Positions 1,926-58,877 of a stretch of 64,000 nucleotides of DNA are shown here, piece after piece. This stretch comes from Escallonia rubra (lineage: Eukaryota > Streptophyta > Magnoliopsida > Escalloniales > Escalloniaceae), in NCBI GenBank assembly GCA_033065855.1, contig JAVXUO010002949.1, positions 496,001 through 560,000 of the forward strand, written 5' to 3'. Position numbers and translations under genes: made by a program. The notes under the pieces were generated by a model, which was not told the DNA's origin, made no database searches, and was given only the letters and a program-made list of their open reading frames with translations. Each line of letters starts with the position of its first letter. Within the stretch, counting starts at the first letter, position 1.

Positions 1926-2761
1926 GTATGTCTGAGCCTGAAGGAGGATGGTATTGGGAATCAGATAGGCTTGGTGATGATGCCTGTCTTATGTCGTTAT
2001 TCCAACAAGCTGAGTGAAAAGAGAATGGTTATCTTGGACATATTTCTTGTCTAATCTTGCAAATCTTGCATGCTCCGATATCAGCTCGCCTGGATTCTGC
2101 AAGGTCGTTAGATTATTATTATGTATTTTACACTGCGTTCCCCCAGCCTAGACAATGTTTTGCAGTATGAGCCTCCACAGGTGGGAACATGTTTAGTCTT
2201 GAGGAGTACATACGGCTTAGTGCTGCTATATCTCCTGTAAACAAACTGAATCCCCAAAAGCATCTGGGGATGTCTGATATTTAGCGTCTTTTTTCTGTTT
2301 CAGGTTTTTGTTGTCTTAGTTACTGAAGCTGTTGCTTTTTATAGGAGAATTTGCTGCTGTCCGACGTGAATAACATTTTCCCCGAGGAATCAAGGAGTAG
2401 TTGCATGTTTGAAGAGGATCAGGTTCAAGGAATCTGCCTTTCCGATTTTGTGTTCCTCTGCCTTCTGGTTGATCTTACCTTGGCGGAAAACTTTGCGATC
2501 TTAAACTACATCATAAACTGTTCAAATATGTACGTTCTGTCATTGAGAAACCACAATAGACTTTCTTTTCTTTCTTTTTCTTAATAATTTCTGTTTGTCT
2601 TCTGCTACCCGATTTATTTTTCAATATTCAGCATGTTATTTTCCCCTCGAATGACTGGAAATAGGATAAAAACTGTAGCCGTGCTTCATAAGCCCCAGCC
2701 TCCGGTCTTTTCCCCGAGGAGAGTTGAAGTAGGGGGATACAGTGAAGAGAATTTCTCTAGG
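1926..2761 (+). other. Possible exon fragments of an unidentified gene
   Basis: Three short open segments have protein-like composition and plausible splice signals. One starts at the ATG at 1928 (MSEPEGGWYWESDR..., ending in a stop after about 29 codons). One lies around 2190-2280 (SLEEYIRLSAAISPVNKL). One lies at about 2667-2761 (KTVAVLHKPQPPVFSPRR), preceded by AG and followed by a good donor, AGG|GTAAGT. No domain is recognisable. It could be a gene remnant, exons captured by a transposon, or chance. A protein search with these three peptides would decide. Confidence 0.25.
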
Positions 2762-5264
2762 GTAAGTTCAAGCATTAACAATAGAAGGTGTAACAATGGC
2801 TGATAATTAAAAACTAAAAAACATGTAAGAACTCCCACTTTCACCTCCAAGGAGAATTTTACATGGTCTTGGATCATTCTGTCTAGATGATTTACAACCG
2901 TTGGTCAAGGACGACTGATTTTATGGTAGGACGCGGCTATATTCAACTGTCTAAGTCGGTCAACCATTGATCCCGAACTATCAAATATATTTCATTTATC
3001 ATTTTTATTTTTTATTTTTTATTTTGTGTTTTTACTTTCGTCATTTTCGTATCTAGATAGAAAATATGCTTGCGTACTGTTATCAATTTCACCACTTTTT
3101 TTCTATCTACTCTTTTCGTGGGTTTATGTCTTGTACCATTTTTATGCCCATTTTGAGTTCACCTTTTTTGGCAAAATCATGTATGTAGTTTACCAATTTC
3201 ACCCCACCTCTTAAAATTTTTCTGGTTCTCTCTCTTCTTTTCAACAACCGTACCACCAGAATCAGCTCTGCCAAGCTACTCTGTCTGACTACGTCCATTT
3301 CATTCACCATAGCCCACCATGTCAAATTGCAACCTAACTAAACCTACTGTCACCACCAGAACTGTAATCAACCATTGAAAATCAAAAGAGATCTAGATAT
3401 GAAAATAAAAGCCCTTACTGAGCATGGTGATGGAGGTGACGCGATAGATCGAGATCGACAATGACCATTGGCATACTCGAGATCGAGATCGAGATCGACG
3501 TGGTAGACTGTCAGCATACTCGTCAAGACCGTCAATTACAACCATATCTAACCCCCCAGCATTTGCCTTTGAGATACCACCTCCACTCATCAGAAATACC
3601 AACGATTTTCACTTGTCCCTACAAGATATGTAGATCTACTTATAGGTAGTGCGGTGGTGTGTGTGTGTGTGAGAGAGAGAGAGGAACTGTGATCGTGAGC
3701 AGAGGTGGGAAGAAAAAGGTGAACAATGGAAGAATGATTGTCTTATCTAATAGAGTGTGAAAGTCTGTGGAGAAAAGCTGAAAACACCTTTAATGTGTTT
3801 TCGGGAGTTTTTGTCACTTTTTGATTGAATTTGTCCAAAACAAAAACTAAAAATGGTAAAATCACACTTCAAATTTTTTTATTTAATCATCGTTGCAAAA
3901 ATGAAAAATAGAAATGGTAAACGTCCCGTACCTCTATTTCCATATATTATGATGTTTTTTCACACCCCGTGTGTTAAAGACAAATTAGCAACCTTTCTAG
4001 CTCCACCTCTCCGCCTTAACCCCAGGTTGAAGATAAGATGGAAGCTCTAAATTGGCGACGTAAATATGCTGACAAATTAGGCAGCAACACACTACCTAAT
4101 TGCCATTTTGGCTATTTCGGTCCCCTCACCCTTCTCTTCTCTCCTATATTAAAACCCTAGAGAAGTTTGTCAAACAAAGTACTAGACTCGTTTTTCGTGG
4201 TGGTTATTGACTGGTTTTTTTGGTTTGATGTAAGGATGGTTTTATATATTTTTTGTTGTGGTGGGTACCTTGAGGACATGGTGTCCTTGTCTACAATTAG
4301 TGTCTTGGTTCAAGTAAGAGCGCGCTATCCTCTATGTAGGCAGCCTTTGTTAGGGGTTATTTGGCGTTAAAACTGATTATTTTTGCCACCCTCGCATATA
4401 TAAGGAGACTTGTTTGTGCCAGTCATTGCCTGAGTTTACGCTGTGGGCAGTGAAGTATCACGTGTTTTTTCTTCAGTTTTTAATGTACTCTATCTTGTAC
4501 TACATGCTTATATTATTTGTAAAATTTTTTGTCCAAAGCCAAAATGAAAAAAAAAAAAAAAAGAGTCCAAGATTTGAGGATGATGGTGGTGATGGAAGAT
4601 GATGGCAGGGGGCGGATAAGCAAAGGTGGCAGAGTGGTGGGGAGAGGGTGTTCGACGAAGGAGAAAGAAGGTGGTGGTGTTGGCAGTGGTAGGCTGGGGT
4701 AGGGGGGTGTGCGGGGGTCTTGGACGATGGTGGAAGAGAGAGAGAGAGATGAACCGATTTCCAAATAAGGTAGGCCTTGATGATATGATTGTCTTATCTG
4801 AATAATATAAAAGTGCCTCTGGCTCTATTTTGATGACAAATAAATGTCGTTAAAAGTTTTAGCAATAGTGACATAACACTTTTATTGACAATAAAATCAT
4901 CTCTATGATGGTATTTGAGAGTGATTCTGTAATGAGAAAACTTGATTAATACCAGATTAAATTAGTTATGAAGTGTTTAGTAAAAAAAAAAAGATAAACT
5001 GATTAAATCTATTTGGTTCGACATTGGCTTCCAAAGTCTTAGCCCTGCAGAAGACTTTAATTTCACCAACATTTCTTGGTTGATTTACTTGTATTTTTAC
5101 CGGTTCCCATCCGTGTTGATTATTTCCCAATGTACTCTTTTGGGACCCAATATGCTTTATGGATTGGACACCTCTTGGTAGTCCAGTCATCGCTTGGCGG
5201 CATACCTGAGCGGACAAGAAACATCCTCGTGGGTCATTCTGGCGAGGTCCAAAGGTTCTGACTG
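2762..5264. other. AT-rich intergenic DNA, no gene supported
   Basis: Only short chance frames are present. Local features are a GAGATC-type short repeat near 3480, a (GT)n(GA)n run at about 3657-3682, a TATATTAAAACCCTAG promoter-like string near 4145, and an A-rich tract near 4548. No splice-linked coding potential was seen on either strand. Confidence 0.5.
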
Positions 5265-5339
5265 GATGTGGCCTTAGCTTATGCCCTAGTGGCTTTACTG
5301 CGTCGGGCGCCTTTGCCTCATATGCTATGGGACGCGGAC

Positions 5340-5905
5340 CCTAAAGCCTATGCTTCACAGGATAATGCCCATCGGGAAATTGAGGCTGTGGCCTATTTTT
5401 CACAAGCGATGGGCCCCTGGAAACTCGAGGCCGTAGCCTATGTTCCAAAAGGGATGACCCCTGGGGAAACTGTGGCCGTAGCCCATGTTCCACAGGCAAG
5501 AAGCCCTTAGGATCTTGTGGCCTTGGCCTTTGTTCCTTAAAGGCTGGCCCCTTGGAGACTTGTGGTCGTAGCATGTGTCCCAAGGGATATAAGTTTGTGG
5601 GTGGCCTATGTTTTGCAGGCAGGTGGCCTATAAGAACTCATGGCTTTGACCTTTGTTCCATAGATGACATGCCCCTAGGAACTCGTGGCCTTGACCCTTT
5701 TTATGTAGATGACATGCCCCTAGGAACTCATGGCCTTGACCCTTGTTCTGTAGATGACATGCCCCTAGGAACATGTGACCTTGACCTTTGTTCCGTAGAG
5801 GGCAGGCCACTAGGAACCTGTGGCCTTAACCTTTGTTCCATAAGGGCTGACCCTTTGGGGACTTGTGGCCTTGACCTTTGTACCAAGGGGTATGATCTCA
5901 TAGGT
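5340..5905. repeat. 45-bp minisatellite, about 12 copies
   Basis: A 45-bp unit is repeated head to tail with growing divergence to the left. A typical unit contains ATGCCCCTAGGAACTC, TGGCCTTGACC and TTGTTC. Because 45 is a multiple of three, frames stay open on both strands across the array (for example plus 5552-5914 and minus 5628-5810). These encode only monotonous repeats such as LGACHL and DDMPLGT. No start context, domain or flanking exon supports a gene. Such arrays are common in leaders and LTRs of plant Ty3/gypsy elements, but the parent here is not identified. Confidence 0.75.

Positions 5906-26074: not shown

Positions 26075-26112
<38 letters not shown>
26073..26112. repeat. (TA)n microsatellite, left flank of MULE
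   Basis: About 20 TA units directly abut the left MULE terminus. A matching (TA)n(CA)n run abuts the right terminus at 35265-35334. Any 8-11-bp target duplication would be hidden inside this repeat. Confidence 0.9.
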
Positions 26113-26114
<2 letters not shown>

Positions 26115-26365
26115 TGATCCCTTGACAGCGCTGGCCAAATATGATAACTTGCCAGAGCGATCTGGCCGTCCATCCCGAAGGGATGGACGGCCCAGATCAT
26201 TTTTTTTTGCGGCGCTGTCAGTCGTCCGCTAGACTGTCTAGCGGACGGACCTTTTTACCATCTTGCCCTCGCGAACCCGTCCGCTACACAGTGTAGCGGA
26301 CGACATAGCAGGGGCCCACATCTTCCGACAAAAAGTCGTCCGCTATACTGTCTAGCGGACGACTG
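26113..26365 (+). repeat. Left terminal inverted repeat of MULE
   Basis: It matches the reverse complement of 35009-35260. It contains a near-perfect hairpin with a 13-bp stem (GGCCGTCCATCCC-GAA-GGGATGGACGGCC, 26164-26192) and three of the 23-bp inverted repeats (26225, 26279 and 26338). Confidence 0.93.
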
Positions 26366-26455
26366 TCATTCTGCCACAATTCTGACAATTCTGACTTGTG
26401 TGTACTTTTATTACTGAACTGTCGGCAATGAGGTCCGCTACACAGTATAGCGGAC
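26223..26455. repeat. Four 23-bp inverted repeats, left terminus
   Basis: Sites of the form GTCCGCTA-N7-TAGCGGAC start at about 26225, 26279, 26338 and 26433. The first three are inside the terminal inverted repeat, and the fourth is just beyond it, ahead of the transposase promoter. Arms are conserved while the seven central bases vary. They are candidate protein-binding sites. Confidence 0.9.
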
Positions 26456-26488
26456 AGTATTTCAACCTACTCAATTTTCTTCAGCACA

Positions 26489-26600
26489 ATTTTCTTCTCC
26501 TTCGGACATACTTCCATTTTCAGCTGCCTTCAAGCTTCGAGTAAATTTTCTTCTCCTTCGGACATACTTCCATTTTCAGCTGCCTTCAAGCTTCGAGTAA
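26489..26600 (+). repeat. 56-bp direct duplication upstream of transposase
   Basis: Two near-identical 56-bp units (starting ATTTTCTTCTCCTTCGGACA) lie head to tail, just upstream of the 5' splice donor at 26629. They are probably in the promoter or 5' untranslated exon of the transposase gene. Confidence 0.8.
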
Positions 26601-26978
26601 CACTTGCTTCAAGCTTCGCTCAAGCAAGGTAAGTTTGCTTCAAGAAATTTGTCACTGTATTCATCAATTTGTGATTTTATACTCTAGATTTTTTGTGATA
26701 TTCTAGACATGATGTTCATCAAAAAGGTATAATTTGTTAACTTTATATTTAATTCATTATAGTTTAATGCGATTTTTGGGCATGATGAAATTCGTCTATT
26801 TATCTTACTAATTTAAATTTGTTATGTTCATTTGGAGACACTTTTGAGATTATGCATACGGTATGTTTGTCATCCTAAATTGGTCTATTCGCCAAGGTAA
26901 TTTTTAGGTAATATTTTCAGTTAGAAATGCCATTTGATTGTTAAGCGTAGTCTATTTCTACACAGCTCTTGTTTCACA

Positions 26979-29273
26979 ATGTCTGATTTCGTGTCAAGCT
27001 CCAACGGCCCCGTAGATGCTAGTGATCCGTATCTAGGACGAACATTTGCTACGTTGGAAGAAGCTGAAGAATGTTTTCGAACGTATTCATTGAGGGTTGG
27101 TTTTGGCATTAGAATAAAGACTTCAAGAACGAGCACCATAACGAGAAAGATATGCTCTCGCTTATACGAGTGCCATAGGAGCAGAAACCCAGTGCAAAAT
27201 GAGACACGCGTAGGCAATGATGACAGTGATGACGAAATAGGATATCCGCGTAGAAGACGGGACTGCTTTGAGCGCACAAATTGCCAGGTCAAGATGTTCG
27301 TAAGCTACAAACCCAAACAAGACCATTGGCTTATTACCAGCCTGGAACTGGCACACAATCACCCGTTAGTAACCCCTTCTAAGGTGAGTGAGATGCATCA
27401 ACACAAGAAGATGGGTAAGGTCGCAAGGAGCCTGATTCAGACAATGAGCAATGCGCGACTAGGACCTACCGACATGATTAATGTTCTTGCTGAACAGGCT
27501 GGGGGAATTCAAAATTTGACCTTTAACACGACAGACGTTCGTAACGCGGTCCGAACCCATAGACGAGCCGCGTATGACCTCAATGATGCTCAAGCCACAA
27601 TGAGCCTATTGAAACGGATGCAGATGGAGGACCCGCAGTTGACCTTCGATTATAAACTTGACGACGAGCATCGAGTGAGCACAATTTTTTGGGTCGACGG
27701 TCGTTCGAGGCTTGCTTATAAGCATTTTGGGGATGTCGTGACGTTCGACACCACATACCGTACCAACAAGTACTCGATGCCGTTCGCCCCTTTCACGGGG
27801 GTCAATCATCATTATCACTCCATCCTGTTCGGGTTCGCCTTGTTAAGGGACGAGACCGAGAGTTCTTTTGAATGGTTGTTTAGGACGTGGCTGGAAGCAA
27901 TGAACTTCAAAGCACCCAAAGTGATCATCACCGATCAAGATTTGGCAATGAAGAATGCTATTGCGACCGTCTTCCCAGACACTCGGCACAACTTGTGCAC
28001 CTGGCACATAAGCAACAAATACCCGGAACGGCTGCATCACGTGTACGCAAAGTATACAGACTTTAAACAGGATTTTGACATGTGCGTCCTCAAGTCGTTA
28101 ACGATTGAGGAATTCGAGGAGAGGTGGGAAAAGCTTGTTCGGGATTACTCATTGCAAGACAACGAGTGGCTCCATCACTTGTACGAGCGCAAAGAGCAAT
28201 GGATTGGTGTTTACACGAGGAGGTATTTTTCAGCGGGCATGAAAACGACGGGCAGGAGTGAATCCATGAATGCCACGTTCGATAGTTATGTGGGTACAGC
28301 TACCAATTTGAAGACTTTCGTTGCATCCGCACAAAAAGCGGTAGCTTCGTTGTTCGTAAAAGAAAGGGCTGCCGACTTTGCAACAACGTACAAACAAAGG
28401 AGAAGGTTGCTCGAGACCCCGCTGGAGCTGAACGGTGCCAAAGTCTATACGAAGGAGATCTTCTTGCTATACCAAGTAGAGCTGCGAAAATCCGGACGAT
28501 ACAGTATAAACAAGGTGGCAGAAATGTCTACGCGTGAGTACAAGGTTTATTCGCTCGTGAATGACCTCGTCCCTAAGAAGCTGCGCAGAATGTATACGGT
28601 GAGCCACGACACATTGACGGACTCGGTGACATGTGTTTGCAAGAAGTTTGAGTTCCATGGCATCCTGTGTAGACACGTTCTGCGGTTTTTCACCCAGAAG
28701 AATATCAGGACAATCCCCGATAAATACGTCTTGCCACGGTGGACGAAAGGTGCAAACAGGTTGCACGGTACCATTTCCTTTCCGGAGCACGCGTATACTG
28801 ACTTTGAAGAATCAGAGACGTTGCGGTATAATCATCTGGTGACGATGTTCACCCGTTTGTCCGTAAAGGGTGCTGCTACAATGGTCGGTTATAAACATCT
28901 CCTCGAGGTAGCTCAGCAACAAGAGCCCATCGTGGACCAGTTCGAAGCAGCTTCAGTCACCAACGCGGTTGACACCGAGCCAACGACGGGATCAGAAGAC
29001 GACGAGCCGGGGGAGGAAGACGACAATGATATCCGGCCGTTGGATCCAATTATATCGCAAACGAAAGGCCGCAAGAGATCTACGCGGATGAAAAGCTCAA
29101 TTGAGACGGCAACTCAATCTAAAAAGCTGCGAAGGTGTGCATTGTGCAACAAAATGACTGACCACGACAAGCGGAACCATTACAAGGCACTGGGGATAAG
29201 TCCAGGGGGTTTGCAAGACGGGGAAGAATATGACGCCGAAGATGAGGACGGACAAGCTGCAGTGGACCTTTAA
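26979..29273 (+). CDS. MULE transposase, FAR1/FHY3-like
   Basis: The enzyme would cut and join the element's ends. The frame of 764 codons starts at the ATG at 26979 (MSDFVSSSNG). An in-frame ATG at 26934 probably lies in a 5' UTR intron (donor CAAG|GTAAGT at 26629, acceptor ACACAG at 26965). Residues 33-130 form a FAR1-type zinc finger (Cys near 65, 96 and 102; His-x-His at 126-128). The MULE catalytic core gives Asp257 (VVTFDTTY), Asp319 (IITDQD), CTWH at 340-343 and Glu428 (GRSESMN). A SWIM finger, C-x-C...C-x-H, occupies 552-566. An acidic tail follows, then a basic KGRKRSTRMK and a small Cys/His cluster (720-734). All key residues are present and there is no stop, so it looks active. FAR1/FHY3 host regulators descend from such transposases, but the flanking inverted repeats mark this one as transposon-borne. 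Confidence 0.95.
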   Translation: MSDFVSSSNGPVDASDPYLGRTFATLEEAEECFRTYSLRVGFGIRIKTSRTSTITRKICSRLYECHRSRNPVQNETRVGNDDSDDEIGYPRRRRDCFERTNCQVKMFVSYKPKQDHWLITSLELAHNHPLVTPSKVSEMHQHKKMGKVARSLIQTMSNARLGPTDMINVLAEQAGGIQNLTFNTTDVRNAVRTHRRAAYDLNDAQATMSLLKRMQMEDPQLTFDYKLDDEHRVSTIFWVDGRSRLAYKHFGDVVTFDTTYRTNKYSMPFAPFTGVNHHYHSILFGFALLRDETESSFEWLFRTWLEAMNFKAPKVIITDQDLAMKNAIATVFPDTRHNLCTWHISNKYPERLHHVYAKYTDFKQDFDMCVLKSLTIEEFEERWEKLVRDYSLQDNEWLHHLYERKEQWIGVYTRRYFSAGMKTTGRSESMNATFDSYVGTATNLKTFVASAQKAVASLFVKERAADFATTYKQRRRLLETPLELNGAKVYTKEIFLLYQVELRKSGRYSINKVAEMSTREYKVYSLVNDLVPKKLRRMYTVSHDTLTDSVTCVCKKFEFHGILCRHVLRFFTQKNIRTIPDKYVLPRWTKGANRLHGTISFPEHAYTDFEESETLRYNHLVTMFTRLSVKGAATMVGYKHLLEVAQQQEPIVDQFEAASVTNAVDTEPTTGSEDDEPGEEDDNDIRPLDPIISQTKGRKRSTRMKSSIETATQSKKLRRCALCNKMTDHDKRNHYKALGISPGGLQDGEEYDAEDEDGQAAVDL

Positions 29274-29281
29274 TTTTTTGT

Positions 29282-29405
29282 ATAAGTTTGACATTTGTAA
29301 TAATTTTTATGGCAGGATAGACATTTGTATAAGTTTGACATTTGTAATAATTTATATGGCAAGATAGACATTTGTATAAGTTTGACATTTGTAATAATTT
29401 TTATG
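29282..29405 (+). repeat. 47-bp tandem repeat after transposase
   Basis: About 2.7 copies of a 47-bp unit beginning GTATAAGTTTGACATTTGTA directly follow the transposase stop. It probably lies in the 3' untranslated or poly(A) region. Confidence 0.85.
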
Positions 29406-29505
29406 GAATACTGGAATGTTTTTACCATCTGATGGATGGATATGCAGGGACCTAAATTTTTGGGGTTTTTTTAATTTTACTTTTTTGGGGTTTTTTTAAT
29501 TTTAC

Positions 29506-29888
29506 GTCCGCTATACAATATAGTGGACGGCAGAGCAGAAACTTTTGGTTTTCATTTATGTCCGCGCTACTATATAGCGGACGGAACAGCTTTGGTCTTC
29601 ATTTTACGTCCGCCATACAATATAGCGGACGGCAGAGCAGAAACTTCATTTATGTCCGCGCTACTATATAGCGGACGGAACAGCAGAAAGCCACACTTAC
29701 GTCCGCCAGACAATGTAGCGGACGGCAGAGCAGAAACTTTTGGTCTTCATTTTACGTCCGCGATACAATGTAGCGGACGGAAGAGCAGAAACTTTTGGTC
29801 TTCATTTACGTCCGCTATATAATATAGCGGACGGCATAGCAGAAAAACTTTTGGTTTTCTTTTACGTCCGCTATACAATGTGGCGGAT
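29506..29888. repeat. Array of eight 23-bp inverted repeats
   Basis: Sites start at 29506, 29560, 29608, 29654, 29701, 29756, 29810 and 29866, that is every 46-56 bp. They are separated by similar spacers (GGCAGAGCAGAAACTTTTGG...TTTTAC). The outer bases GTCCGC and GCGGAC are the most constant. Some arms are imperfect (for example GTCCGCGCTA on the left, TAGTGGAC on the right). It lies between the transposase 3' end and the B3 promoter. An open frame across it (29523-29822) is a by-product of the repeat. Confidence 0.92.
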
Positions 29889-30049
29889 AAGTCTATATGA
29901 TATATATTAATCATATCGGGCAATCGGCTGTTATCAGTCCTATCTGGAGGGCACTCTCTCTGTCTCGAACATCTAGCCTAGGCCACTACTCCATCTCCGG
30001 CGACCCACAACTCCGGCGATAAACCGTCCCCCCCTCAACGCCGACCTCG

Positions 30050-30520
30050 ATGGCTTCTGGATTGGAGACCACCTACGATTTTATTGGCAACTTGCACCTG
30101 GCAGGCAAACACTTTTTCAAAGTCATGATGCCGGGGTTTGAGAATGAACTTGTATGCCATCCCTCTATCTCTGTACTTTCGTGTGTTAAAGGTTTGATCT
30201 TTTGGTTAAAAACTAACCTATTTTTTGTGTATTGTGTTTGTTAGGACATACCGGAAGCCTTGACCAATCAATTTACAACAATTCATGACAGTGCAAGATT
30301 ATATAGCCGCAAGGGGGCATGGCAGGTTGAAATCAAGCTGAAGCCCGGCCGACCCCAAAAAAAGCAATTCGCAGAGGGTTGGAACGTCTTCGTGCGCCAG
30401 CATGGCCTCGAACTCGGGGACTTTGTAGTGTTTGAACACCTTGGGTGGTGGGATTTTCAAGTTGTAATCTTTGATCGGAGCACTTGTGAAAAAATTTCTT
30501 TCCCCCAATGTGAACCCTAA
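30050..30520 (+). CDS. B3 DNA-binding domain protein
   Basis: B3 domains are plant-specific and bind DNA in the major groove. The model is join(30050..30151, 30245..30520), 125 residues. Exon 1 ends CTT|GTATGC after KHFFKVMMPGFENEL, exon 2 begins after TTGTTAG with DIPEALTNQF, and the phases agree. The protein is one B3 domain (about residues 20-118) of the REM type. It has FFKVMMPGF at strand 1, WQVEIKL, then WNVFVRQHGLELGDFVVFEH (the Gly-Asp-Phe-Val signature) and FQVVIFD. No other domain is present. A TATA-like TATATATTAA lies near 29901. It sits between two arrays of inverted repeats. It is uninterrupted, so probably functional. Its target and role are unknown. I infer that it may bind the element's own inverted repeats. 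Confidence 0.88.
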
Positions 30521-30621
30521 TTTATTATTAATAAAATAATTTGTGTTCTTGTTGATTGTGTTTCGAATTAAAAGAAAATAATTTGTGTTCTTGTTGACTT
30601 TAATTGTGTCGTACATTTTAC

Positions 30622-31059
30622 GTCCGCTAGACAATGTAGCGGACGGCGCAGCAGAAACTCCACCCATCAACACTTAGAAAAATTCCCTACCTACATTCGT
30701 CCGCTACATTGTATCGCGGACGGAGAAGGAGAAAAATTTGGTCTTCATTTTACGTCCGCTAGACAATATAGCAGACGGTGCAGCAGAAACTCATCAACAC
30801 TTAGAAAAATTCCCTACCTACATTCGTCCGCTACATTGTATCGCGGACGGAGAAGGAGAAAAATTTGGTCTTCATTTTACGTCCGCTAGACAATATAGCG
30901 GACGGCAGAGCAGAAACTCCACCCATCAACACTTAAAAAAATTTGGTCTTCATTTTACGTCCGCTAGACAATGTAGCGGACGGCGCAGCAGAAACTCCAC
31001 CCATCAACACTTAGAAAAATTTGGTCTTCATTTTACGTCCGCTATACAATGTAGCGGAC
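30622..31059. repeat. Array of seven 23-bp inverted repeats
   Basis: Sites start at 30622, 30699, 30754, 30826, 30881, 30959 and 31037. Spacings alternate between ~55 and ~72-78 bp. Longer spacers contain CCACCCATCAACACTTAGAAAAA. Two sites (30699 and 30826) have GTCCGCTACATTGTATCGCGGAC-like arms, that is, the opposite loop orientation. It lies between the B3 stop and the stop of the convergent PMD-ULP1 gene. Confidence 0.92.
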
Positions 31060-31256
31060 GGTGCAGCAGAAATACTAAACTTCACTACTTAGAAAATTTT
31101 TGCACCATTTCGTTTTCCACATTTCAATCATTCCCAATGAGGCCAAAAAACCAACAACTTAAATCAATGAATCAGACATCGACAACAGAAATCAACACAA
31201 ATCAAATCACACCAATGAATCACGGTTTATGTAAAAATTACTGTTATGATACAATT

Positions 31257-34200
31257 TCAACTGGGGTCCGCATGTTGGGGCGGATTCTCGTCATTAGCCG
31301 GATTTTCTATAAACCTAACTGCTCTAGGCCGGCCTTTCATAATTTGCCAAGCTATTCTATATCTATAGGCGTCAACTTCTGCTTGGCTCCAGACGGCCGC
31401 CTTGAGGCTCTCAGAGCGACAAATGAAATCCATGTACATGCAAAGGAAGACGCCGCAGTCCGAAGTGTTACGTTGCTTGGGCCTCCTCTTCTTCAATCGC
31501 CTATCGAGATTTGGCCGCGCCGGTACGGGGACGTTGCGGACACGATTGACCATTGCACAAAAAATATTCTGCGAGAAACAGAAAATGGCGTAAGACACGA
31601 GTTAAAATTTATGGCAAGATAGAATCAGAGCATTATACAGCGATCGTAATATTACCAATGAGTCCAACTGGGCTTTGTACATCCGCAGCACAGGCATGTC
31701 ATGAGTATCGTCGTGGAGACTGTCGATCAACGATACGACTTTACTTGTTGGGCTGTAGCAAACCAAGTACCAGTGGCTGTGCCCTAGAAATGGGATTAGA
31801 AACACATCGGCAACACTTGCGCTCACCGGACTATCCCTATTAATATACGCTCCTAAGTTAACGGACGGTCTCCAGTGGGCCAACTTTTTCTTCCCCCTAT
31901 GTTCGACCCACTCCTGCCATTCAGACACTAGCATCTGATGAAAAAAGGCATCGAACAAAAAAACGGCCGGATAGGTCGGCTGCTGCCGACACCTTTCCTT
32001 CAGAATTTCCACGTAGGTGGAGACGACACCGTTGTCTAACCAACTCCCCGGAGCCAGGGAGGCCAGTTCTCCCCACGAGCAACTGTAATCCATGCCCTCC
32101 GGATGATCCACACTATACGACGCTTTGTCATGCCGGTAGCCGCTAAAATAACGCTCTCTGATTATCTGGCATTTATGCGGCTTTAGGGGCTTCAACGGAT
32201 GCCCTTTGCGATATTGCCCTCGGGGGTCGACGGGGGGATATTGCACTCCTTCGGGGGGGGGTCGACGGGGGGATATTGCACTCCTTCCGGGGGGTCGACC
32301 GGGGGATATTGCACTCCTTCGGGGGGGTCCACGGGGGGGTATTGCCCGCCTTCGACAATAGATGGTCCTGCCCACGGGACAATGGGCAGACTGATGTTTC
32401 CGAACATCCAGTCTTGCGTGACTTGACTCTGAGAGAGTGGTTGGGGTTCCGAATCCAATCGTAAAGAGAAGGAGGGCGCACTGTAATAATCCCACTGCGC
32501 TTGAGCCTGGCCCATGGTGCTTGGCGGTCCCCAATCACCACCCATCTCCGGTACAGAGGGAAAACCATATCCCTGGCTCACTCCCGAAGTTTGTCCCGAG
32601 GGATCGGTGCATCCCTCGGGAATAAACGGCCGCTGCCACCCCGGATAACCCATTCCCGGGTTTGGCTGTCCCGATGCTTGCTGCAAAAAATTCCCGCAGC
32701 CAAGCGCCAACGCTTCAGCCTGTTGGCGAAGCTCCTCGCCCATGGCATCCACCAAATCCTTCCGCTCGCTCAACTTCTGGAAGAAGGCGAACGAGGCATT
32801 AACCTACATCCAGAGAGATAATATGTAAGTAACTTCGTACACACTTAGAATGGTCAAGTTCAATTAGAAGCACTGGTTGGGCAACTTACCAGATTGTATG
32901 CCATGTGCTCATCGATCTGACCCCTAGGGTGGTACTTCTCCCCGCGTTCAAACCTTACTGGAGCTACTCTCCTCCGGGTGATGCGAAAGTACCACTCATT
33001 GTACTGTTCGATGCTGATGACGGGGTCAGGCTCCGACACAATGGCCGCCAGCGTGTCCTGCCAGGAATTCCAGACCTCAATTTCACGCGCGCACAAGTCG
33101 TGCGCATTCGCCCTGCCAAACAGTCCGACACCCGGTGGGTTCCTGTTAAGCCTCATATCTGGCGCCGGCTGGCAACCCCTGCAGGCAGTCAAAATGGCGC
33201 ATAGCGCGATCTGGCAGCTGCCACTCTGCGACCTCGAAGTGGATCAGGGGTGTGCGTTGCAACCCGGAGAGCGTGAAGACAAACGACTCTCCCACCCGTC
33301 GCGCCAAACGTTTGTACGGTGCCCATCGCATCTGGCCAGGAGAGCACGAGTCGAGCTCCCCCCGATAGTATGAAATGTTGTGATGGGGATCGTCTCTCCT
33401 CTCGTAGTGGGTTTCCTTACGGCTGTACTCCCAGGCGCACAACCGAGGCCACACATTATCTGTTCCGTCCCTACGCCTGGGTGCGCCGGTAGCAAGGTGT
33501 TCATAAGACCACACATGAGAGCAAAGACATTAAAAAAAGTATCGTCAACATTTATTGTCCATTCAACAAAAAAAAACAACAAAGAGCACGTAATGAAGAA
33601 TTGTATGATATACCTGCAATAGCGAGAGACATGCACATATCGCTTTGGAGTCGGGCCTCGTTGCCTTGTGCAACGCTCGGTACAGGTATGCAAGAGTTGC
33701 TGCACCCCAGGCATAATCCCCAACCTCAGCCAGGTTACGCAAAAACGGTAAATATTTGACGCTGATCGTGTTCTTCGACGTCGTTGGGAATAATATTGCC
33801 CCCATCACCCACCAGAGGAAGGCTTGTGTGTACAGCACAAGGTCATGGCCCGTATAGTTTTCCGGCAAAACCCCGTAGGTATTTACCAACCACTTCAACT
33901 TGATACCACCACTGCTAAATCCATCATGGGGTATCGAAGTAAAGAAGTCCCTAGCGGTCCTCTTATTCGTTGCTTCGGACGGATGAGCTATTACCGGCCG
34001 CCCCGTCACCGGTAACCCTAAGATGAACCCTACATCTTCTAGGGTAATTGTCATCTCTCCGAGAGGGAAGTGAAACGTATTCGTTTCACTTCTCCACCTT
34101 TCAACAAGGGCACCTATTAAGTGCCGGTCAAGTTGTTGAAAGATCTGCCCATGCGTGAAAATCCCAAACCCAATCCCACGCAGTAATCTTTTCTGGGTTC

Positions 34201-34451
34201 TGTTCAATTTCCAGGCGTTGAAATTATCGCTTACTTCTACCGTGTTGACAAGTGCTCTTTCCTACGAATTAATAAATATTATTTAAGCAAAATAAACGAT
34301 ATACAACGTTCGCAACTGAAATACGTAAGCAAAATAAACGATATAAACGATAAAATAAGTATCTTACTCCACCATCCCATATGAGCGTACTGATATGGTT
34401 TGCTTGGTCGTATAATACGGACGGATCTTCTGGTCCAGGGTTGAAATCCAT
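31257..34451 (-). pseudogene. Plant mobile domain-ULP1 (C48) protease fusion, apparently damaged
   Basis: Five minus-strand exons are inferred: 34368..34451, 33614..34261, 32890..~33514, 31656..32803 and 31257..31568. Exons 1-3 encode a PMD (MDFNPGPEDPSVLY, then TFHFPLGEMTITLEDVGFIL, AALAYLYRALH, VAEWQLPDRAMRHF). Exon 4 adds a Gln/Gly/Pro-rich linker. Exons 4-5 give a ULP1-type cysteine protease with His and Asp in SHWYLV and LIDSL and Gln and Cys in PKQRNTSDCGVF, so the catalytic set is present. ULP1 enzymes remove SUMO. PMDs occur in MAIN/MAIL silencing factors and in transposons. Oddities: the acceptor expected before VWSYEH reads AT instead of AG, a GGGG run near 33178 shifts the frame, and C runs in the linker repeat shift it again. 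Splicing or hypervariable repeats could explain some of these. The three exon joins whose two ends I checked (exon 1-2, 3-4 and 4-5) keep phase 0. Confidence 0.82.
32205..32355 (-). repeat. 33-bp coding repeat in PMD-ULP1 linker
   Basis: About four copies of a unit encoding VQYPPVDPPEG carry C runs of six to eight bases. Run-length differences between copies change the reading frame, so different copies are open in different frames. It joins the PMD part to the protease part. Confidence 0.8.
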
Positions 34452-34820
34452 TTTTTACAACTGAAATAATGGAAAGAGGGCAAGGTTGGAAGCGTAAACA
34501 TTCCCAAACATACAACGCTAGCATATTCAGCGCTAGCATGTGATCAGATAATACGCAATACACATATATAATATATATGTAATACATTGACAAACGCTAG
34601 CATAGTGCCGATCTACTTGCCAACGCCGCAAGATGAACTCTAGATTATGAACAAAGAAAGGATTGGTTTGTGAACTTACGTGATTGATGAGACGATTAAA
34701 GGATTTCTTGCAAAGAAATTGCGCCGATCTACTTGCCAACGCCGCTGGTTTGACTGTGAGAAGAAGGAATAGTTTGATTGTGAGAAGAAGGAATGAATAG
34801 AAGTTTAGGGTTACGAAGTG

Positions 34821-35150
34821 GTCCGCTACAATGTGTTGCGGACAACAACCGTCGTCCGCTAGACAGTGTAGCGGACGACAGGGCACGATAAAGTAGTCCG
34901 CTACACTGTCTAGCGGACGGCATAGCAGGGGCAAGATAACGACAAAGTAACAGTCGTGCATCGACTGATGTGCGGACTGTCAGGGGGAAGTGGCTGATTT
35001 GACGGAATCAGTCGTCCGCTAGACAGTATAGCGGACGACTTTTTGTCGGAAGATGTGGGCCCCTTCTATGTCGTCCGCTACACTGTGTAGCGGACGGGTT
35101 CGCGAGGGCAAGATGGTAAAAAGGTCCGTCCGCTAGACAGTCTAGCGGAC
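34821..35150. repeat. Six 23-bp inverted repeats, right terminus
   Basis: Sites start at 34821, 34854, 34896, 35014, 35073 and 35128. The last three lie in the right terminal inverted repeat and mirror those on the left. The first three lie upstream of the PMD-ULP1 gene, the counterpart of the site upstream of the transposase. Confidence 0.9.
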
Positions 35151-35260
35151 GACTGACAGCGCCGCAAAAAAAATGATCTGGGCCGTCCCTCCCTTCGGGA
35201 TGGACGGCCAGATCGCGCTGGCAAGATATCCTATTTGGCCAGCGCTGTCAAGGGATCAGC
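35009..35260 (-). repeat. Right terminal inverted repeat of MULE
   Basis: Reverse complement of the left terminus, with about five mismatches and one length difference in a T tract. The internal hairpin is imperfect here (GGCCGTCCCTCCC opposite GGGATGGACGGCC). It is followed by TCCC and then the (TA)n run. Confidence 0.93.
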
Positions 35261-35262
35261 TC

Positions 35263-35334
<72 letters not shown>

Positions 35335-56800: not shown

Positions 56801-58877
56801 TTGGTAATTTGCCATGTTGGGGCTAATATTTTTGGAACGCGCGTTACTATGCGTTTAGAGTGGTGGGAAGTGAGGAATGGTGTTAATACATTTAAATAAT
56901 GGGAGTGGTTATTGTGGAGGCGTCGATAAGGCTAGGTTAAGGATCCGGTTATCAAATCGGATTAACGAGTTGTCGTAAGACGCTATGAACGGTTAAATGG
57001 GAAGGGGTAGAATAAGGAGTGCGTATATGTTGAATGATGTCTAATGAGTAGAATATTATTTGACTAGGTGATGCAGCTCATTGCGATCAGAGGTTGCGAG
57101 TTGCTTCGGCTATAAGACAATGAGGTAAGGACAATGCGGTGCTAATATGCTAATTAATTGTTTCGGTTAGCATGACATGTTGATGACGTTTATGTTAAAC
57201 TCTTGTTGTTATGATTGGACACTGGTAGTCATTGTGACCGGTATTCGTTTAATTGAATTTTGCTGTTGAGGACTTAAGGTAGAATAAATTTCCTTAGTCC
57301 GGCCCATTGATGAAATTTAGTAAGGATAATGCGTGTCGTAGTATGCTATGACTTGATTCGAGTAGCATACCTGACGTTGGGGGTGATATTGTGTAGGGGT
57401 TGTTGTGCGGTTGTTGTGAGATGTCGGCAATTATTGATAGTCGATATCTCTCCTATTTGAGAACACCATTGAGGATGTCGGCAATTATTGATAGCGGATA
57501 TCTCTCTTGTTTGAGAACACTATTGAGGACTTGTGGTTAAACATTTCCCAAGTCCGCCCCATCGTTGATGGTGATGATGTTGAGATTGTTACGTTGTTGT
57601 TATGAAATGTCAGAACTTATTGATGATCAACATTTCTCTTATGCAAGAACGTTGTTGAGGACTTGTGGCAAACTTCTCCCGAGTCCGCCCTGTTGATGAT
57701 GTTACGTTGAATTCCTGTTGTTAGGTTTGAACACCGGTTGATCTTCTGATCCGGTATTCCTTGTTGAATTGTGTTGTTGAGGACATGAGGTGGAATAATT
57801 TCCCTTAGTCTACCCCGTTGATGAAGCCATGTTGCTTAGCTGTAATGCGGTTAGGGATAAGCACTCAAGATGAGTTCCCTGCTTATTGACAGTGTCTCTT
57901 CTAATTACTTGAGATTGAGATGAACATCCCATAAAATGGGACATCAATATTAGGAGGATGGCCTATGAACTATGATAACTGGCCAAAGAGGATGTATGGG
58001 GCTCGAGCCGAGTCTGGTCAAGTCCAATCCGTCGTGCCCGAGTTACATTGCATTTAATTTCTTTTGATGTTAACGATTTTAATGACTTGTATTTTGTTGA
58101 TGTTTATTTCTTTAGATTTCCTGTTTTAGTGTTCACTTGCATAGTCGGTCAATCAGTCAGTCTTGTCTATGAGGAGGTGGCAGTAATGTTGTTTTGTTGG
58201 GCCTTGAAGCCACTCAGTCTAATGAAAGAAAAATTATAGTTGACAAATTATGTTGATGCTGAAATTTATTGTATACTCTTGATTCATTGCTATCGTTGAG
58301 ATGATTATTATTCCTCCGAGTCTCTCGAATCATTTGTACACGATACTCCTCGTGAAACCTTTACTGGGCGATTTGCGCTCATTCCTTATGTTGTGTTGTG
58401 CAGGCTATAAGGTTGATCAAGGATAACCCTCTAAAAAGGGAAAAGAAATAAGCTTGAAAAGTTGAGCAAGGGGATCACTTGTGTGAGGTAAGACAAGCTA
58501 GAATTGGTGAGATAAAGATTGAGTTGCGAGATAAGTTGATAAGAGTCACACGACTACAGTCGTATATTAGGCTGTAATTCATGTTGTTTAGAGACCTGAA
58601 ATTCTTCCGCTGCAGTACGATGTACGTTTATAAGAAAAAAATTGTAAGGATGCATTTTAGAGCATCTACTAATGATGTATGAGTACGAGGATGTAGTTGC
58701 TCTATATTCAGCACAGGATTTTAAATGTGATTATGATCGATAACTCAGTCAGGTGATGTCACCAGGGTTGAGGGTGTCGCACAACTCCTCGGGATACTTC
58801 TCAACTGCCTTCCACCACCGAAACATGGTAACTTGAAACACAAGAGATAAGTGGTAAGAATTCAATAAGCACGCATA

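What the first reader, a model, noticed from the sequence alone, without database searches (positions are those of the whole stretch)
26223..35150. Twenty-five dispersed 23-bp inverted repeats throughout the MULE's noncoding DNA
Seen: sites GTCCGCTA-N7-TAGCGGAC occur 4 times at the left end, 8 times after the transposase, 7 times between the B3 and PMD-ULP1 3' ends, and 6 times at the right end. None lies in a coding exon. Arms are conserved and the centre varies, as expected for a dimer-binding site. Inference: recognition sites of an element-encoded protein (B3 protein or transposase). Known parallel: the VANC proteins of VANDAL elements bind short motifs repeated in their own noncoding DNA and relieve silencing.
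Basis: partly seen in the sequence, partly recalled or inferred. Interest (0 to 1): 0.88.

Follow-up and report, generated by a model that had tools for sequence, protein, structure and literature searches.

The report
Repeated palindromic sites in a MULE
A plant jumping gene carries 25 copies of the same rigid mirror-image DNA site in its non-coding parts; the site recurs over eleven thousand times in this genome, in every sampled case within this family of jumping genes, and looks like a docking site for a protein that the element makes for itself.

Summary
Confirmed: 25 sites GTCCGCTA-N7-TAGCGGAC in four non-coding blocks, none in the coding stretches found (shuffles expect 0.05). The genome, inferred to be Escallonia rubra, holds 11,428 exact sites (reversed control 0). 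Each of the 11 loci fetched for holding sites belongs to one TIR-MULE family. Spacing is rigid: 11,428 of 11,509 pairs have 7 bases between arms. Arms differ 3-4 times less than centre or near flanks, though in close copies not less than other non-coding DNA. Arm changes are not compensated, so these look like DNA half-sites, not hairpins. The centre is not free: YAYWRTR.

Best reading: dimer-binding sites of an element-encoded protein, working like VANC (anti-silencing) or TnpA. The binder is unresolved. The standalone B3 protein is favoured: most sites lie mid-element and B3 evolves fast. Against it, arms stay fixed while B3 diverges about 20-24% and the transposase 5-10%, and a 136-bp derivative keeps two sites. 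A homologous B3 gene sits in a CACTA element with a similar half-site. New variant of a known kind; no binding tested.

The parts
26113..26365 (+). Left terminal inverted repeat of the MULE; its outer 110 nt are a foldback; holds sites at 26224, 26279 and 26338
   Evidence: 97% identical to right TIR; one of 17 family termini aligned; foldback z = -6.84 as single-stranded DNA
35009..35264 (-). Right terminal inverted repeat, ending GGATCAGCTCCC beside (TA)n; holds sites at 35014, 35073 and 35128
26224..26455 (.). Block 1: 4 palindromic sites (left TIR and subterminal, upstream of the transposase)
   Evidence: all 4 exact in the arms
26979..29273 (+). MULE transposase, 764 aa, one open frame, with FAR1, MULE and SWIM domains
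   Evidence: PF10551 1.5e-33, PF03101 3.9e-13, PF04434 5.3e-5
29506..29888 (.). Block 2: 8 palindromic sites, 46-56 bp apart, between transposase stop and B3 start
30050..30521 (+). Standalone B3-domain gene, 125 aa; exons 30050-30151 and 30245-30521 (GT-AG intron, predicted by eye)
   Evidence: PF02362 1.9e-9
30622..31059 (.). Block 3: 7 palindromic sites, 55-78 bp apart, between the 3' ends of the B3 and ULP1 genes
31257..34450 (-). PMD plus ULP1-like protease coding stretches (exon limits approximate)
   Evidence: PMD 4.6e-50 and 2.8e-16; Peptidase_C48 2.2e-6, and 4.4e-4 just under its curated cut-off
34821..35150 (.). Block 4: 6 palindromic sites (subterminal and right TIR)

Best explanation
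The 23-bp repeats are cis-acting binding sites for a dimeric protein that the element itself encodes. Each site is two inverted half-sites, read outward from the axis as R-T-R-TAGCGGAC-g, at fixed distance. The element multiplied them, largely by tandem duplication, in its non-coding blocks and keeps them in small mobile derivatives. The most likely reader is the standalone B3 protein, acting as TnpA of Spm or VANC of VANDAL does: it coats the element's own non-coding DNA, marks it as self, and counters silencing and/or assists assembly of the ends. SHOWN by computation: family restriction as far as sampled, rigid spacing, arms more conserved than centre and near flanks, no compensated arm changes, four-block placement, retention in the derivatives seen, a B3 gene that changes fast with the frame open in several copies. 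INFERRED: that a protein binds, that it is the B3 protein, and that the result is loss of silencing.
For: Genome counts: 11,428 exact sites, control 0; 34,427 at up to 2 mismatches, control 42. With 0-14 bases allowed between arms there are 11,509 pairs, so 99.3% have exactly 7. Against the window copy, arms differ 229/3650, centre 304/1607, near flanks 1075/4463 (39 of 41 loci then held; L006 and L007 gave no alignment); in four TIR-dominated loci picked from that table, arms 7/223, flanks 90/244. Over 559 sites (280 distinct), at positions 4-10 from the axis, 274 site-position cells have one arm changed and 4 have both, about 6.7 expected if the arms are independent. Sites stand in all four non-coding blocks in the 3 elements held with both termini, transposase and B3 (window, L009, L060): 15/25, 21/29 and 18/25 in the two internal blocks. 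B3: 240 exon-level matches from 150 scored of 1,976 candidates; clade A (window) v clade B dN/dS 0.87-0.98, against 0.24-0.34 for the transposase. A lone B3 domain, with no other Pfam match, has DNA binding as its obvious role (general knowledge).
Against: B3 exon 2 differs by about 20-24% of bases between the window and clade B, including nearly the whole C-arm loop that reads bases in known B3 domains (loop role recalled; alignments), yet the site arms do not change; the transposase differs by only 5-10% outside the close pair W-L009. The clade shift at outward position 3 (A 77% v G 73%) does not track B3 cleanly: L001 has a clade-B B3 with A 19/30, and the window itself is mixed, A 20/50, G 17/50, C 13/50. 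In the 30 close loci L012-L041 arms differ as much as other non-coding DNA, 161/2568 v 642/10549. Of 605 left arms (up to 1 mismatch) 110 lack a right arm at 7 bases. A 136-bp derivative with its own 9-bp duplication keeps two sites, which points to a transposition role. No binding, expression or methylation data exist here. Identical B3 proteins in L012-L041 were selected by the search ranking and say nothing of constraint.
Confidence: 0.47

Rival explanations
1. The transposase binds the sites through its FAR1 domain, as MURA binds Mu TIRs; the internal blocks are autoregulatory or by-products of tandem duplication, and the B3 protein does something else.
For: Arms are constant across elements whose transposases differ by 5-10% while B3 differs by about 20-24% between clades and ULP1 by 22-25% between the window and L001, L004, L005, L060. 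The FAR1 domain is 86-98% identical in the 5 of 7 loci with a full-length match; L005 matches in two pieces (70-79%) and L002 over 22 residues only. The 136-bp derivative keeps two sites. MURA itself causes hypomethylation of TIRs (Burgess et al. 2020 as cited in PMC10398659, passage seen).
Against: 60-72% of sites lie in the two internal blocks in the 3 elements counted; the outer 110 bp of the TIR has none.
Confidence: 0.33
2. The sites serve a host transcription factor hijacked for element expression.
For: Three blocks lie upstream of the three genes.
Against: Block 3 lies between two 3' ends; none of the 50 exact places listed lies in a locus without the family; 99.3% fixed spacing.
Confidence: 0.07
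3. The palindromes act as hairpins (RNA processing, small-RNA source or DNA cruciform).
For: Each is an inverted repeat with 8-bp arms; blocks 2 and 3 may be transcribed in 3' ends. Just outside the arms, at position 12, both sides are changed together in 111 sites, 66 expected, about half of them complementary.
Against: Within the arms, at positions 4-10, double changes are no commoner than expected (4 v 6.7) and 1 of 4 is complementary; inner pair 11-13 fails to pair in 85 of 159 sites.
Confidence: 0.05
4. No function: a minisatellite-like unit that spread by tandem duplication and hitch-hiked in an amplifying MULE.
For: Blocks 2 and 3 hold sites in longer shared units; array sizes differ, 7, 16 and 14 sites in block 3 of the window, L009 and L060. 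In close copies arms are not more conserved than other non-coding DNA (161/2568 v 642/10549).
Against: Arms are more conserved than flanks beside them and, in L001-L011, than other non-coding DNA (68/1082 v 853/6665). Inner CpG kept in 96% of half-sites and outer CpG in 54% in clade A, 93% v 36% in non-autonomous copies, but only 83% v 67% in clade B; this test is partly ascertained, since the inner CpG lies within the search pattern.
Confidence: 0.08

Closest known systems
VANDAL MULEs and VANC proteins (Arabidopsis)
   Same: Element-encoded extra gene; short motifs repeated in tandem in the element's own non-coding DNA; array sizes turn over; fast-changing protein (PMC5735166 and PMC10398659, passages seen).
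   Different: VANC21 motif is 9 bp (YAGTATTAY), arrayed in one orientation; VANC is a DUF1985-type protein (recalled), here B3; VANDALs lack long TIRs (recalled), here TIRs of about 255 bp.
Spm/En (CACTA) TnpA
   Same: Accessory DNA-binding protein for repeated subterminal motifs, with roles in transposition and in demethylation of the element (PMC2613891 and PMC10398659, passages seen).
   Different: CACTA, not MULE; motifs described as subterminal; that TnpA is not a B3 protein is recalled.
MuTAnT (Medicago truncatula) TA-microsatellite MULEs
   Same: MULE with foldback TIRs inserted in (TA)n, with small non-autonomous derivatives (PMC4486113, part 1 of 4 read).
   Different: AutoMuTAnT has a single transposase ORF; no B3 gene or dispersed palindromic sites mentioned in the part read.
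MuDR/MURA
   Same: MURA hypomethylates TIRs of non-autonomous copies (cited in PMC10398659, passage seen).
   Different: That MURA binds within TIRs is recalled; here most sites are internal and the transposase is of FAR1 type.
Plant B3/REM proteins (VRN1, At1g16640)
   Same: B3 domain; weak sequence matches to VRN1 4i1k (E 0.029) and 1yel (0.12).
   Different: Standalone 125-aa protein in a transposon, with 240 exon-level matches among 150 scored candidates in the genome.

Membership tests
Mutator-like element (MULE) | MULE transposase domain | tested here: met
   PF10551 E 1.5e-33
Mutator-like element (MULE) | Long TIRs | tested here: met
   about 255 bp, 97% identical
Mutator-like element (MULE) | Target duplication of about 9 bp | tested here: met
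   L009 ATTAAACAA and L006 ATATATCTT on both sides; cannot be read in the window copy because of the (TA)n flanks
VANDAL/VANC system | Tandem short motifs in the element's non-coding DNA | tested here: met
VANDAL/VANC system | VANC-type (DUF1985) protein | tested here: not met
   B3 protein hits only PF02362; the PMD stretch reaches DUF1985 at 13.7 bits against a cut-off of 35.1
VANDAL/VANC system | No long TIRs | tested here: not met
   TIRs present; that VANDALs lack them is recalled
VANDAL/VANC system | Protein binds the motif and removes methylation | not testable with these tools
   no binding or methylation data
TnpA-like accessory protein | Element-encoded protein binds repeated sites at both ends | not testable with these tools
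   sites at both ends seen; binding not tested
B3 domain protein | B3 domain above curated cut-off | tested here: met
   37.8 bits, cut-off 30.1
MuTAnT-like (TA)n-targeting MULE | Termini flanked by TA repeats | tested here: met
   14 of the 17 termini listed abut or lie near (TA)n; the exceptions are both ends of L009 and the right end of L060

The most novel reading that the evidence does not exclude
A small host B3 DNA-binding domain has become a portable self-recognition module of transposons. It serves a MULE through palindromes of TAGCGGACgg and, as a homologue 57% identical, a CACTA element through subterminal TAGCGACGG units. Two unrelated superfamilies would then share one kind of protein and nearly one half-site, each holding off silencing with its own version.
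Probability: 0.15. Interest if true: 0.85.

Novelty: new variant of a known kind. Interest (0 to 1): 0.62.

Why it matters
Sequence-specific anti-silencing by a plant transposon has been worked out in depth for VANC. A second system, with a different protein domain, a palindromic dimer site and a very large natural set of sites (11,428 exact), would show that this strategy arises repeatedly and by capture of host DNA-binding domains. The site is rigid and long enough to serve as a probe, so binding and methylation tests are direct. The appearance of a homologous B3 gene in a CACTA element lets one ask whether such modules pass between transposon superfamilies.

Tried and rejected
Rejected: hairpin function (no excess of compensated arm changes); simple chance; VANDAL membership. 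Considered, not settled: co-evolution of B3 clade with site position 3, spoilt by L001 and by the mixed window copy. The half-site likeness TAGCGGACGG / TAGCGACGG may be chance or may reflect a CACTA motif older than the B3 gene: CACTA-type paired units number 9,297 exact places, control 1; how many stand in B3-bearing copies is unknown, because only 40 of 4,623 candidates for the B3-bearing unit were scored.

Led nowhere: viral-contig scan (no relative); literature search for the CACTA motif letters (the 15 papers listed of 390 look unrelated by title); structure prediction of a B3 alignment (queue full, never run).

Not-in-print statement rests on searches only: their listings (25, 15, 15, 8 and 4 papers shown) showed no title or abstract start about a MULE encoding a B3 protein with cognate sites; most subscription papers are not held.

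Full report
OBSERVATION. The sites are real. One search lists 25 matches to GTCCGCTA-N7-TAGCGGAC (up to 3 mismatches; 14 exact) at 26224-35150 and one 3-mismatch match at 57477; 100 shuffles average 0.05. They fall in blocks of 4 (26224-26455), 8 (29506-29888), 7 (30622-31059) and 6 (34821-35150), outside the coding stretches found.

ELEMENT. TIRs of about 255 bp, 97% identical, bound it at 26113-26365 and 35009-35264. It encodes a FAR1/MULE/SWIM transposase in one open frame, a 125-aa standalone B3 protein with one predicted intron, and PMD and ULP1-like stretches on the minus strand. Family termini mostly read GGGAGCTGATCC; the window's left end lacks GGGA. Of 17 termini listed, 14 lie at or near (TA)n; L009 and L006 show clear 9-bp duplications, ATTAAACAA and ATATATCTT. 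So it is a TIR-MULE that prefers TA microsatellites, like MuTAnT (PMC4486113, part 1 of 4 read).

HOST. The genome has 566,129,122 bases in 3,222 contigs. The Escallonia rubra draft is given as 566 Mb in 3,233 contigs (PMC10759652, part 1 of 2 read), and the one protein found close to the B3 is from E. herrerae. E. rubra is therefore an inference, not a label.

GENOME-WIDE. Exact sites: 11,428 forward, reversed-pattern control 0. Up to 2 mismatches: 34,427, control 42. With any gap of 0-14 between the arms: 11,509, control 46, so 99.3% have a gap of exactly 7. In the fetched loci, with up to 1 mismatch per arm, 495 of the 523 head-to-head pairs within 40 bases are at 7, and 110 of 605 left arms have no such partner. 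I fetched 11 regions from the top of the listing: each holds family termini, transposase or B3, and they contain the 50 exact places listed. L001 and L004 show transposase and B3 but their termini are not in the fetched stretch. The sample follows contig order and is not random.

SITE MODEL. From 159 sites in 12 loci: A10 in 157, T14 in 159, positions 9, 11, 13 and 15 mostly Y, Y, R, R, position 12 A or T about equally.

CONSERVATION. Relatives aligned to the window element (39 of the 41 loci then held; L006 and L007 gave no alignment at that threshold) differ at 229/3650 arm bases, 304/1607 centre bases, 1075/4463 near-flank bases, 1495/17214 other non-coding and 3290/53210 coding bases. Against the reading: in the 30 close loci L012-L041 arms (161/2568) differ as much as other non-coding DNA (642/10549); in L001-L011 they differ half as much (68/1082 v 853/6665). 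Misaligned units in tandem blocks inflate flank and centre values. In L002, L003, L008 and L011, picked after the table because the TIR dominates there, arms are 7/223 and flanks 90/244. The relatives' bases were not chosen by the motif, but the places in the window were. Over 559 sites, at positions 4-10 from the axis, 274 site-position cells have one arm changed; 4 have both, about 6.7 expected if independent, and 1 of the 4 is complementary. At position 12, outside the arms, joint changes are in excess (111 v 66, about half complementary). Arms thus evolve as two independent half-sites, which argues for protein binding to DNA and against hairpins.

PLACEMENT. In the three elements held with both termini, transposase and B3 (window, L009, L060), sites stand in all four non-coding blocks, with 15/25, 21/29 and 18/25 in the two internal blocks. 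L060 gave no PMD match. Block 3 holds 7, 16 and 14 sites. Non-autonomous members keep sites: two of about 1.4 kb (L008, L011) and one of 136 bp (L006) made of termini plus two sites.

B3 GENE. The search gave 240 matches, counted exon by exon, from 150 scored of 1,976 first-look candidates. Twelve loci gave a spliced model by my pattern, 4 of them broken (L001, L004, L054, L056). Between the window (clade A) and clade B copies L005, L045, L046, L048 and L052, dN/dS is 0.87-0.98 with dS 0.29-0.37 (L005 has lost its usual start codon); against clade C (L057, L059) it is 0.62-0.64; within clade B it runs from 0.37 to 1.74 on few changes; for the transposase against five loci it is 0.24-0.34. This is fast change with frames kept open in several copies. 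Identical proteins in L012-L041 reflect the way the search ranks hits.

WHICH PROTEIN BINDS. For B3: it is a lone DNA-binding domain, its gene lies between two site blocks, most sites are internal, and it changes fast. For the transposase: arms are constant while B3 differs by about 20-24% between the window and clade B, ULP1 by 22-25% between the window and L001, L004, L005 and L060, and the transposase by 5-10% outside the close pair W-L009; and the smallest derivative seen keeps sites. A clade difference at outward position 3 (A 77% v G 73%) could mark B3 co-evolution, but L001 breaks it and the window and L009 are mixed. I put B3 at 0.47 and the transposase at 0.33.

A SECOND TRANSPOSON WITH THE SAME KIND OF GENE. 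Clade C B3 genes (57% identical to the window B3) lie in L057-L059, which have no MULE site. In L058 and L059 they sit inside a CACTA element: ends CACTA.../...TTGTAGTG, TAGCGACGG/CCGTCGCTA subterminal units, 3-bp duplication ATG in L059, not clean in L058 (TGA v TAA); L057 is cut at its right side. Forty copies of the unit were scored, a cap, of 4,623 candidates. The half-site differs from the MULE's TAGCGGACGG by one base deletion. That is a lead, not a proof: paired CACTA units number 9,297 and vary in spacing, and how many have a B3 is unknown. More distant B3 relatives are named from Bertholletia, Cuscuta and Cryptomeria; whether those are in transposons is unknown.

COMPARISON. It works like VANC/VANDAL (PMC5735166, PMC10398659, passages) or TnpA/Spm (PMC2613891, passages), but fails VANDAL membership (TIRs; no DUF1985-type protein above cut-off). 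Closest overall: a TIR-MULE with a B3 gene in the VANC or TnpA role. The listings of searches showed no such element. VERDICT: real, family-restricted, dimer-type sites with conserved arms; new variant of a known kind; binder and effect untested.

Noticed in passing
L058 and L059 (clade C B3; L059 reverse complement about 1956-5570): A CACTA element of about 3.6-4.2 kb carries an open B3 gene homologous to the MULE's (open frame read in L057 and L059), with TAGCGACGG/CCGTCGCTA subterminal units; L059 has a 3-bp ATG target duplication.
   Followed up: partly
window 26080-26112 and 35265-35320; termini in L002, L003, L005, L008, L011, L027, L060: The MULE family inserts preferentially into (TA)n microsatellites: 14 of 17 termini, as MuTAnT does in Medicago.
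   Followed up: yes
window 26114-26223: The outer 110 nt of the left TIR is itself a long foldback (DNA fold z = -6.84) with a near-perfect inner inverted repeat around GATCTGGCCGTCCATCCC.
   Followed up: partly
window 31257-34450 against L001, L004, L005, L060: The ULP1 stretch differs by 22-25% from the window's while the transposase differs by 7%; L004 pairs an A-type B3 with a ULP1 nearer those of clade-B elements, so modules may recombine.
   Followed up: partly
L006 4596-4731: A 136-bp member made only of short termini and two sites, with a 9-bp duplication: perhaps close to a minimal mobile unit.
   Followed up: yes
L003 about 3724-5405: A non-autonomous copy of about 1.7 kb holds GC-rich coding-like sequence between the site clusters, possibly a captured gene fragment.
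   Followed up: no
window about 32220-32340: Short GC-rich tandem repeat inside the ULP1 coding stretch, seen by eye.
   Followed up: no
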